A stretch of 64,000 bases of DNA from Rozella allomycis CSF55 (lineage: Eukaryota > Rozellomycota): the NCBI GenBank assembly GCA_000442015.1, contig KE561130.1:1-64000 (forward strand), read 5' to 3'. This document shows, in pieces, positions 2,494 through 5,473 of this stretch; the stretch's first letter is position 1, and the number at the start of each line of letters is the position of its first letter. The notes below the pieces were generated by a model. That model was not told the origin of the DNA and did not search any database. It saw nothing but the letters and a program-made list of their open reading frames with translations. The position numbers were made by a program, and so were the translations under genes.

Positions 2494-5473
2494 ACAAACA
2501 GAAGAAGCGAGAGCGGAAGCGTTAGAATTGATGGGTGTTAAAAATAACCTTGTTACGCCACGAAATGGTCAGCCCATCATTGCAGCGACGCAAGATTTCA
2601 TTACAGCGAGTTATTTAATAACCAACAAGGTAAGGTTGATCACTAGTATTTATTAGGTAAACTATTCTATCACTTATCACTATTAGGTAAACTACTCTAT
2701 CACCAATTTCTATTAGGTAAACTACTCTATCTCTTATTATTAGGTACNACATTTCTTTATCTCTTTTCACTGGTAGGATGTGTTTTATACAAAGTCACAA
2801 TTTTCTCAAATTTGTTTAATGTTTTGTGATTCCAATATAAAATTAGATTTAGTGCCCCCATGTATAATAAAGCCAATAAAGTTGTGGAGTGGCAAGCAAG
2901 TTATTAATATGTTGATAAGACCAAACAGAGAAAGTGAAATTGTGATAAACTTGGAAAACAAGGGAAGAACATTCTCCAAGCCAAAAGGGATTCCAGACAT
3001 GTGTGAAAATGATGGATATTTAGTTATTTTCAATTCTGAGATTATGTGTGGAACTTTGGACAAGGCACACATTGGAGATGGAAATAAGGGTTCTCTCTTT
3101 TATGTCGTTTTAAGAGATTATGGCCCACTGGCTGCTGCTGAGTGTATGAATAGAATTGCTAAATTGTGTGCCAGATGGTTAGCTAACAGAGGATTCTCAA
3201 TAGGTATTTAGACTTATAAAGTTCAATTCTAGGTATTGAGTATCTTATGGGTTTAACAAAGGTAAGCAATGTTATTTATTCTAAAAGGGATTAATGATGT
3301 TCAACCAGGATTTAAATTAAGAAAAGAAAAAGACAATCTAGTAGTTAAAGGTTACAATGAATGCGATTTTAACATTCAACAATTTAAATTAGGAAATTTA
3401 CAGAATCAACCAGGGTGTAATGCAGAACAAACGTTGGAAAGCAAAATTTCTGGTATTTTATCAAAGATTAGAGATGATGTTGGTCAGATATGTTTACAAG
3501 AATTAAGTAAATTCAATGCGCCTTTAATTATGCAATGGTGTGGTTCCAAAGGTATGAGATGATTAATTATGTGACTATAGGTATAGATAGATTTAAAATT
3601 TGACTATAGGTATAGATAGATTCTGTAAAATGAATAGGAAGTAAAATTAATGTTTCTCAAATGGTTGCATGTGTTGGACAACAGATTATTAGTGGACAGA
3701 GAATACCAGATGGCTTCACTTGCCGATCTTTGCCACATTTTGGAAAGAATTCAAAGATTCCATCAGCGAAAGGGTTTGTTAGAAATAGTTTCTATTCGGG
3801 GTTAACGCCAACAGAGTTCTTTTTCCATGCAGTGTCTGGCAGGGAGGGTCTAGTTGACACTGCAGTTAAGACAGCAGAAACTGGCTACATGCAGAGAAGA
3901 CTGATGAAAGCGTTGGAAGATTTGAGTGCGCATTATGATGGTTCTGTGAGAAATTCTATTGATGGGATAATTCAATTTAAATATGGCGATGATGGGTTAG
4001 ATCCAGCAAACATGGAAGGTCAAGACAAGCCAGTTCATTTCTGGCATAATTTGTTACATTCAGTTCATTACATTAATGGTCAAAATGACCCTGGTTTAAC
4101 TATAGATGAAATTAATCTTTTATTGAAAGAAAAAATAAAATTATTCAACAATTGTTCTAATGGATTTAAAGATCAATTGAAATCTTTTATTAATGAAGAA
4201 ATAATTTCTAAAATTTCAAATCTAATTCAGAAATTTCCTAAATATAATTTTAATGAAATTTCTAAAATATTTAAAGTGACAGAAAAACAAATGGAATTAT
4301 TTTTTGATATTTGTTTGAATAAATATTCTAAAGCCAAGATGGAGCCAGGTACAGCTGTTGGTGCATTGGGTGCTCAAAGTATTGGAGAGCCAGGGACTCA
4401 AATGACATTGAAAACTTTTCACTTTGCTGGTGTTGCTAGCATGAACATTACGTTGGGTGTTCCCAGAATAAAAGAAATCATCAACGCTTCAAAAGTAGTC
4501 AAATTATTTCAACTATTCTAGGCTATTAGCACTCCAATTATAACAACAAAGTTGGTCAACGATCAAAGCATCCCTTGCGCTAGAATTGTCAAGGGAAGAA
4601 TTGAAAAAACTTTGCTAGGCGATGTCATGGAATACATTGAACAAGTCTTCACTCCTGGTAACACTTTACCTTTATTTGAAATAGATGAATGTTATCTTTT
4701 GGTTTCTATTGATATGAACGCCATCATGGCACTTCAATTGGAAATAGATCTTTATTCCATTCAACAATCAATCATCAAATCTAAACTAAAAATAAACCCC
4801 CAGTGCGTCATCCCACGTGAACCAAATCTCATCAAAATTGCCATTCTTCAATCAAATGATCTATTCTATTCAATTCAACAAATTAAAAGACAATTGCCTG
4901 ACATCATCATCAAAGTATTTCCATCTAATCACAACTAACAAGGGTATTCCAACTGTTTCTAGAGCTGTCATTAATGATCTCGGTGGTTCATTTAATCTTC
5001 TAGTTGAAGGGAATGGTTTAGCTCAAGTCATGACAATCGATGGAGTTATTGGAACTGAAACAACTTCAAACGACGTCATTGAAGTGGAAAAGACTTTGGG
5101 CATCGAAGCTGCCAGATCTTGCATCATCAACGAAATTCAATACACAATGGGAAAACATGGAATGACAATCGACGCCAGGCATGTCATGCTGCTAGGTGAC
5201 ATCATGTCCTTCAAAGGCCAAGTCCTCGGTATCACTAGATTCGGTATCTCAAAAATGAAAGACTCGGTTCTCATGCTCGCGTCTTTTGAGAAAACTACCG
5301 ACCATTTATTCGAAGCGGCTGTCTTTTCTAAAAAAGATGCAATCAACGGCGTCTCTGAATGCATCATCATGGGTATCCCAATGCCCATCGGTACTGGCAT
5401 GTTCAAACTACAAAATAACATTGATCTCTCGCCTGGTCCTCAACTAGTTCCAATCTTTGAATCCAATCAATAA
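839..5473 (+). CDS. RPC1: DNA-directed RNA polymerase III subunit RPC1 (largest subunit)
   Basis: Largest subunit of RNA polymerase III, which makes tRNA, 5S rRNA and U6 in the nucleus. Exons: 839-876, 904-1039, 1060-1389, 1429-1635, 1664-2629, 2777-3203, 3288-3551, 3638-4494, 4522-4914, 4943-5473, giving 1382 residues, close to human POLR3A. The N-terminal clamp zinc motif (CETCG with CVGHFGYLKLALPVFH) is present. The catalytic metal-binding motif NADFDGDEMN lies at about 2454-2483, the trigger-loop region (GEPGTQMTLKTFHFAG) near 4385-4432, and the C-terminal cleft is complete. Several junctions use AAG acceptors (for example 1636-1663), chosen because they alone restore the family alignment. 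Three junctions hold arrays of tandem intron-like units (2630-2776, 3204-3287, 3552-3637), described separately. The gene looks intact and functional. Confidence 0.96.
2630..2776 (+). repeat. Tandem array of five intron-like units inside RPC1
   Basis: Between exons that must join directly (residues ending ITNK, then DVFYTK) lie five consecutive units: 2630-2656, 2657-2686, 2687-2716, 2717-2743 and 2744-2776 (27, 30, 30, 27 and 33 nt). Each starts GTA and ends TAG, the form and length of a single intron in this genome. Units 2-4 share GTAAACTAYTCTATC and look like tandem duplicates. One N sits at 2748 in the last unit. Either one atypically long 147-nt intron or five introns separated by zero-length exons. 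Confidence 0.8.
3204..3287 (+). repeat. Tandem array of three intron-like units inside RPC1
   Basis: Units 3204-3232, 3233-3261 and 3262-3287 (29, 29 and 26 nt) all start GTA. The first ends TAG, the others AAG. Removing all three joins GFSI to GINDVQPG, matching the conserved GFSIGIGDVTPG region of RPC1. The units differ more from one another than those in the other arrays. Confidence 0.75.
3552..3637 (+). repeat. Tandem array of three intron-like units inside RPC1
   Basis: Units 3552-3580, 3581-3609 and 3610-3637 (29, 29 and 28 nt) each start GTAT and end TAG. Units 2 and 3 share GTATAGATAGATT, so one likely arose from the other. Removing all three joins CGSKG to SKINVSQMVACVGQQ, as in other RPC1 proteins. 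There is no N in or next to this array. Confidence 0.8.

What the first reader, a model, noticed from the sequence alone, without database searches (positions are those of the whole stretch)
2630..2776. Five back-to-back intron-like units at one RPC1 exon junction
Five units of 27-33 nt, each with GTA start and TAG end, lie between exons that must join exactly. One 147-nt intron would be far outside the tight 26-35 nt size range seen in this window. Units 2-4 are clearly related (shared GTAAACTAYTCTATC). This suggests introns multiplied in tandem with zero-length exons, each removable on its own by successive splicing: a possible mode of intron gain by tandem duplication.
Basis: partly seen in the sequence, partly recalled or inferred. 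Interest (0 to 1): 0.85.

Follow-up and report, generated by a model that had tools for sequence, protein, structure and literature searches.

The report
Tandem micro-intron arrays in Rozella genes
In a tiny fungus-like parasite, some genes carry rows of two to twelve complete mini-introns placed end to end with no exon between them, apparently grown by local copying and probably spliced out in several steps that all give the same message.

Summary
At 2630-2776 five GTA...TAG units (27, 30, 30, 27, 33 nt) separate two RPC1 exons that must join exactly. Unit 5 contains N2748, so unit 5 and the count are not secure. The organism is Rozella allomycis. RPC1 has three more arrays, free of N (2, 3 and 3 units), and loci fetched mostly for arrays hold dozens, up to 12 units. 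Removing a whole array leaves an open frame in 33 of 43; leaving one unit in does so in 21 of 179. RPC1, topoisomerase II and SPT16 alignments support exact joins. Adjacent units are often similar, units of different arrays almost never: growth by local duplication. Arrays sit between AG and G, single introns seldom. Internal donors are about as consensus-like as outer ones, which favours stepwise splicing, but no RNA was available. Unexplained: all 23 modelled arrays of four or more units run from G-rich to C-rich. The paper searches I made listed no description of such arrays.

The parts
926..5473 (+). RPC1 gene (RNA polymerase III largest subunit), start codon to stop codon, nine intron positions
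   Evidence: Spliced frame open, 1344 codons plus stop; identical to public R. allomycis RPC1 except one residue and two array sites; an earlier, slightly wrong splice aligned to RPC1 of 7a6h over residues 2-1361
2630..2656 (+). Array B unit 1, 27 nt GTAAG...TTAG; ends with an in-frame stop
   Evidence: the ORF ends at 2656
2657..2686 (+). Array B unit 2, 30 nt
2687..2716 (+). Array B unit 3, 30 nt, identity 0.83 to unit 2
2717..2743 (+). Array B unit 4, 27 nt, identity 0.73 to unit 3
2744..2776 (+). Array B unit 5, 33 nt, contains N2748; its sequence and the total count are uncertain
1390..1446 (+). Array A: two units (28+29), both ending AAAG; exon context AAG|..|GTC
   Evidence: gap-free against 7a6h_A; the public model keeps 6 extra residues here
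3204..3287 (+). Array C: three units (29+29+26); context TAG|..|GGA
   Evidence: joins as GFSIG|INDV in P0001, gap-free against 7a6h_A
3552..3637 (+). Array D: three units (29+29+28), adjacent identity 0.76 and 0.71; context AAG|..|GAA
   Evidence: gap-free against 7a6h_A; the public model lacks 15 residues here
1040..1068 (+). Single intron, 29 nt
1636..1663 (+). Single intron, 28 nt
4495..4521 (+). Single intron, 27 nt
4658..4684 (+). Single intron, 27 nt
4915..4942 (+). Single intron, 28 nt

Best explanation
The 2630-2776 stretch is one of many tandem micro-intron arrays in the Rozella allomycis genome. Each unit of about 29 nt is a complete spliceosomal intron, joined to the next at AG|GT with no exon between. 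The spliceosome, whose modelled single introns here are 26-31 nt in 329 of 349 cases, removes the units in several steps in any order; every order gives the same mRNA. Arrays grow by local tandem duplication of an intron flanked by the short repeat AG|G, probably by microhomology slippage or unequal exchange. A new copy does not alter the mRNA, so growth is nearly silent. Shown: zero-length-exon anatomy, absence from the protein at tested arrays, local similarity, AG|G context, internal sites kept. Inferred: stepwise splicing, the slippage mechanism, near-neutrality.
For: 50 chains of 3 or more units in 25 sequences (window plus 24 loci, 19 of them fetched for arrays) against 0.6 in a Markov control. 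Genome-wide three-junction pattern 179 places against 45 for the reversed pattern; two-junction pattern 177 against 82. Whole-array removal leaves an open frame in 33 of 43 arrays; leaving one unit in, 21 of 179 units. Gap-free protein joins at four RPC1 arrays, three topoisomerase II positions and one SPT16 array. Unit length 28.7-29.3 nt against 27.7-27.8 for singles, both narrow. Adjacent units at identity 0.75 or more: 34 of 133; another array of the same gene 0 of 773; other genes 4 of 16883. AG|..|G context: arrays 46 of 60, singles 37 of 349; strict set 21 of 31 against 32 of 334, p=8e-13. A at +4 of the donor: internal units 107 of 133 (diverged 55 of 65, similar 52 of 68), first units 48 of 57, singles 0.72, core A 0.35.
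Against: No RNA: use of internal sites is not shown. The array-wide G-to-C gradient suggests something acting on the array as a whole, which unit-by-unit splicing does not predict. 10 of 43 arrays failed the frame test as delimited, some probably mis-delimited; upstream flank alone was open in 41 and downstream alone in 40. The gene finder used splice-site weights learned from arrays, so the site frequencies depend in part on that choice; at acceptor position -4 internal diverged units (A 0.44) are below singles (0.59). In a cited fission-yeast case one intron spans four tandem AGGT repeats (passage in PMC4974935). Only 21 of 57 N-free modelled arrays hold a pair at identity 0.75 or more. 14 of 60 arrays lack the AG|..|G context, among them a protein-verified topoisomerase II array at CAA|..|GAT.
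Confidence: 0.68

Rival explanations
1. Compound intron: the array is removed in one step by the outermost GT and AG; the inner units are a tandem repeat carried along, with array-level sequence (G-rich 5' part, C-rich 3' part) helping the outer sites meet or be recognised.
For: First unit richer in G over C than the last in 23 of 23 arrays with 4 or more units and about 37 of 39 with 3 or more. Slightly more base pairs between the array halves than in shuffles (23.1 against 18.6, z 0.53, sem 0.16, 36 arrays). Fission-yeast precedent as quoted in PMC4974935.
Against: In RPC1 no intron position longer than 29 nt fails to split into units (4 of 4). Internal donors are about as consensus-like as outer ones. 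Folding energy is no better than controls (z -0.01, sem 0.27, 25 arrays; -0.17, sem 0.19, 36 arrays), and parts of one array do not fit each other better than parts of different arrays (mean rank 0.484; 0.448).
Confidence: 0.22
2. Assembly artefact: alleles or repeats laid end to end by the assembler, so the arrays or their counts are false.
For: 21 of 45 single Ns lie between near-identical stretches (my count), some inside arrays; at L036:4662 only array sequence is repeated across the N, so that count is unreliable. Unit 5 of the finding contains N2748.
Against: 40 of 43 arrays of 3 or more units are N-free, among them the 12-unit array and two of RPC1; the RPC1 pair at 1390 is N-free too. 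In the six seams I printed, exon sequence is repeated as well. Neighbouring units mostly differ: only 34 of 133 adjacent pairs reach 0.75.
Confidence: 0.04
3. Introner-like insertion: mobile introns inserted repeatedly into AG|GT sites, including the junctions of existing introns.
For: Strong AG|G context of arrays; many units of an array are unrelated to one another.
Against: No family of units shared between sampled arrays: 4 of 16883 pairs from different genes reach 0.75; a genome search with the 2630 array found only itself, although that search skips very common words.
Confidence: 0.06

Closest known systems
Recursive splicing at ratchet points (zero-nucleotide exons), Drosophila (PMC8605326, abstract and passages)
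   Same: Juxtaposed AG|GT acceptor and donor inside an intervening sequence; stepwise removal, zero residues left
   Different: There: long introns, with a cryptic exon required at the ratchet point. Here: units of about 29 nt, up to 12 in a row
Stwintrons, spliceosomal twin introns (PMC9024468, PMC8469720, PMC12403724: starts of abstracts in the listing; two reference-list passages of the last)
   Same: Two or more spliceosomal introns at one position need consecutive reactions
   Different: In a stwintron the inner intron interrupts a splice element of the outer one; here complete units stand side by side
Tandem array of dual-specific AGGT splice sites in human UBC (PMC10809524, abstract and passages)
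   Same: Head-to-tail AGGT junctions usable as donor and acceptor, tied to tandem repeats and de novo introns
   Different: UBC units are coding monomers; Rozella units are absent from the protein and lie in unrelated genes
[quoted passage not shown] potato RdRp and fission yeast as told in PMC4974935, abstract and passages)
   Same: AG|GT direct repeats and tandem duplication create or multiply introns without changing the protein
   Different: Here units do not resemble the upstream exon, and the downstream likeness comes largely from truncated array models; what multiplies is an intron
Introners (PMC9860276, start of abstract in the listing; one reference-list passage)
   Same: Many introns gained in one genome; AG|GT insertion sites are recalled, not seen in a call
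   Different: No sequence family shared between sampled arrays

Membership tests
Zero-length-exon recursive splicing | AG|GT junction inside the intervening sequence with nothing left in the mRNA | tested here: met
   Unit junctions are AG|GT by anatomy; protein joins gap-free at the arrays checked (four RPC1, three topoisomerase II positions, one SPT16)
Zero-length-exon recursive splicing | Splicing intermediates at internal junctions in RNA | not testable with these tools
Stwintron | Inner intron interrupts donor, branch or acceptor of an outer intron | tested here: not met
   Each unit carries its own GT...AG and abuts the next
Tandem-duplication intron gain (Rogers) | AGGT or AGG at both ends of the duplicated segment | tested here: met
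   AG|..|G in 46 of 60 arrays against 37 of 349 singles; strict 21 of 31 against 32 of 334. Met by most arrays, not all
Tandem-duplication intron gain (Rogers) | Intron ends resemble flanking exon sequence | tested here: not met
   46 arrays: upstream exon against first and last unit p 0.50 and 0.73; downstream exon p 0.039 and below 1/3000, but several of those downstream stretches are plainly a further unit missed by the gene model
Introner family | Sequence-similar introns at many loci | tested here: not met
   4 of 16883 pairs between genes at 0.75 or more; one search found only itself. Only part of the genome was compared unit by unit

The most novel reading that the evidence does not exclude
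Rozella has a silent intron ratchet: an intron flanked by AG|G can be copied in tandem at no cost to the mRNA, so some genes carry long arrays that turn over between alleles and must be removed by several consecutive splicing reactions; and each array is read as an ordered whole, as its regular G-rich to C-rich polarity shows.
Probability: 0.4. Interest if true: 0.85.

Novelty: new variant of a known kind. Interest (0 to 1): 0.76.

Why it matters
It offers a natural system, with dozens of arrays already in the part of one small genome that I sampled, in which intron number at a site can be followed like a microsatellite: how introns multiply, whether the mRNA is blind to it, and how a spliceosome used to introns of about 28 nt copes with up to 12 in a row. 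It also shows how gene models break: at two of four RPC1 arrays the public protein differs from the reading that aligns gap-free to a distant RPC1.

Tried and rejected
Hairpin joining the outer splice sites: complementarity is no better within an array than between arrays, and folding energy is no better than shuffles; only a small excess of pairs between the halves remains, and 3 of 36 arrays fold better than z -1.64. Gene-wide drift as cause of the gradient: skew goes from 0.68 to -0.34 inside arrays, while flanking exons go from 0.15-0.39 upstream to 0.02-0.24 downstream, a smaller step in the same direction. Exon-derived units: rejected as told in the membership test. A flat intron model without units called 283 long introns, 40 of which split into units against 1.6 expected; by their place many of the others seem to bridge intergenic DNA, which I did not check, so I do not use it as a clean test. 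I first took 1636-1663 for a frameshift; it is a single intron, so the RPC1 query holds about a dozen wrong residues there, and 9 extra at 4658-4684. Relatives: a scan of viral contigs gave 14 loci with distant relatives only (24-36% identity). The rRNA search failed twice.

Literature: the listings showed no description of such arrays, judged by titles and starts of abstracts; one search listed 40 of 62 papers, 25 of 836, 25 of 37. Passages of PMC8476143 and PMC5611559 on Rozella do not mention them. Most subscription papers are not held, among them the 2013 Rozella genome paper (recalled, not seen).

Limits: of the 24 loci analysed beside the window, 19 were fetched for arrays, one (L052) for an exon match, and four 10-kb stretches without regard to arrays. 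Genes, introns and contexts come from a home-made gene finder, which truncates some arrays.

Full report
What is there. The window lies in a 9.97 Mb assembly of 213 contigs. Its RPC1 is 97% identical to the public Rozella allomycis CSF55 protein, the next hit by score being 63%, so the organism is R. allomycis. RPC1 runs from 926 to 5473 with nine intron positions; with all removed it reads as 1344 codons with no internal stop and equals the public protein except for one residue and two array sites, where the public model has 6 extra or 15 missing residues. At both sites my reading aligns without a gap to RPC1 of PDB 7a6h (human, recalled).

The finding. 2630-2776 splits exactly into five GTA...TAG units of 27, 30, 30, 27 and 33 nt. 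Units 2-4 are alike (adjacent identity 0.83 and 0.73); units 1 and 5 are not (0.55 and 0.52). The exons join as ITNK|DVFY without a gap. Unit 1 ends in an in-frame stop, so retention would truncate the protein. Unit 5 contains N2748. By my count 21 of 45 single Ns in 25 sequences lie between near-identical stretches, apparently unmerged allelic contig ends. N2748 is not among them, but the fifth unit and the count stay provisional.

Not a single case. RPC1 holds three more arrays, free of N: 1390-1446 (28+29), 3204-3287 (29+29+26) and 3552-3637 (29+29+28). All four long intervening sequences of the gene split into units; the other five are singles of 27-29 nt. In the window, chains of 3 or more units number 3 against 0.3 expected. 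In 25 sequences, 19 of them fetched for arrays, there were 50 chains against 0.6 in a Markov control, the longest of 12 units. Genome-wide, three AG|GTA junctions at unit spacing occur at 179 places against 45 for the reversed pattern. The 100 places listed fall into 29 clusters by my count, some of which may be chance; I did not examine what makes 40 of the 45 control hits fall on one strand. Of 10 array genes scanned by one long exon, 9 have a Pfam family: topoisomerase II, SPT16, a Sec7 protein, glycogen debranching enzyme, two dynein heavy chains, two HYDIN/CFAP65-like proteins and CFAP43.

All units are removed. Of 43 arrays of 3 or more units, removing the whole array leaves a frame open over 60 nt on each side in 33; leaving one unit in does so for 21 of 179 units. 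The upstream side alone is open in 41 and the downstream side alone in 40. The 10 failures include arrays that my grammar delimits badly and arrays with an N. Protein alignment supports exact joins at topoisomerase II (MIMTDQ|DHDG and KYYK|GLGT, arrays free of N; DFVG|SNNI, an array with an N) and SPT16 (FREL|GFNG).

How they grow. Adjacent units of one array reach identity 0.75 in 34 of 133 pairs, non-adjacent in 13 of 166, units of another array of the same gene in 0 of 773, of other genes in 4 of 16883; shuffled cores never do. So copying is local. 21 of 57 N-free modelled arrays hold such a pair, including 4 of 4 with 6 or more units. Arrays lie between AG and G in 46 of 60 cases against 37 of 349 single introns. 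Some array models stop one unit early, which inflates a downstream GT; dropping every block with GTA downstream or TAG upstream leaves 21 of 31 against 32 of 334 (p=8e-13). In RPC1 it is 4 of 4 arrays and 0 of 5 singles; in topoisomerase II one verified array stands at CAA|..|GAT and some singles at AG|..|G. An intron between AG and G is flanked by a direct repeat AG|G, which is what microhomology slippage needs; that mechanism is inference. Where an N separates two versions of a locus, exon sequence is nearly identical while arrays differ in their units, for example in topoisomerase II and the Sec7 gene, which suggests fast turnover if the two are alleles.

How they are spliced. Every way of pairing unit borders gives the same mRNA, so mature transcripts cannot tell. 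Unit length averages 28.7-29.3 nt against 27.7-27.8 for singles. Donors of internal units have A at +4 in 107 of 133 (diverged 55 of 65, similar 52 of 68), first units in 48 of 57, singles 0.72, core A 0.35. Acceptors of internal diverged units are TAG in 41 of 52, outermost ones in 18 of 42, singles 0.56; at position -4 internal diverged units (A 0.44) are weaker than singles (0.59). These counts come from a gene finder with site weights, applied alike to inner, outer and single introns. I read them as maintenance of internal sites and hence stepwise splicing, at 0.68.

Against that reading. In 23 of 23 arrays of 4 or more units and about 37 of 39 with 3 or more, the first unit is richer in G over C than the last (0 of 5000 permutations reach it); in arrays of two the trend is weak (p 0.055). 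Single introns show no fall from G to C between their halves. Mutation does not know a unit's rank, so something may act on the array as a whole. Hairpins are not the answer on present evidence. A one-step compound intron stays possible at 0.22.

Place among known things. Nearest are ratchet-point recursive splicing (PMC8605326), stwintrons (PMC9024468, PMC8469720, PMC12403724), tandem dual-specific AGGT sites in UBC (PMC10809524) and tandem-duplication intron gain (PMC4974935); what I saw of each is stated under Closest known systems. The arrays work like the first and arise somewhat like the last, but complete micro-introns in rows of up to 12 differ from each. The listings showed no report of them. 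One study gives Rozella 2.5 introns per kb without mention of arrays in the passages I saw (PMC8476143).

Noticed in passing
arrays in the window and L034-L057: Units run from G-rich (first) to C-rich (last): G 0.21 to 0.06, C 0.06 to 0.215 (arrays of 4 or more); first above last in 23 of 23 modelled arrays of 4 or more units. No explanation found.
   Followed up: partly
window 40048; L034:3002, L036:5720, L037:3924, L040:3298, L051:1081 and others: 21 of 45 single Ns (my count) separate near-identical neighbouring stretches, apparently unmerged allelic contig ends; local duplications beside a single N may be artefacts.
   Followed up: partly
L036 minus strand, about 6060-5343: An exon stretch of topoisomerase II appears twice with nearly identical DNA but different flanking arrays and an N between: probably two alleles of one locus.
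   Followed up: partly
L034-L051 and window: Modelled genes with arrays of 3 or more units are long (median 1188 aa in 18 models against 422 in 62 plain ones) and more G-over-C skewed (0.25 against 0.12); some are cilium genes. Array loci were selected, so this needs a whole-genome test.
   Followed up: no
window 7101-7985 +: Open frame with a Uma2-type putative endonuclease domain (E 9.5e-8) in a fungal-lineage genome; the family is mainly bacterial (recalled).
   Followed up: no
window 1390-1446 and 3552-3637: The public R. allomycis RPC1 model has 6 extra residues and 15 missing residues exactly at two arrays: gene callers can fail at arrays.
   Followed up: yes
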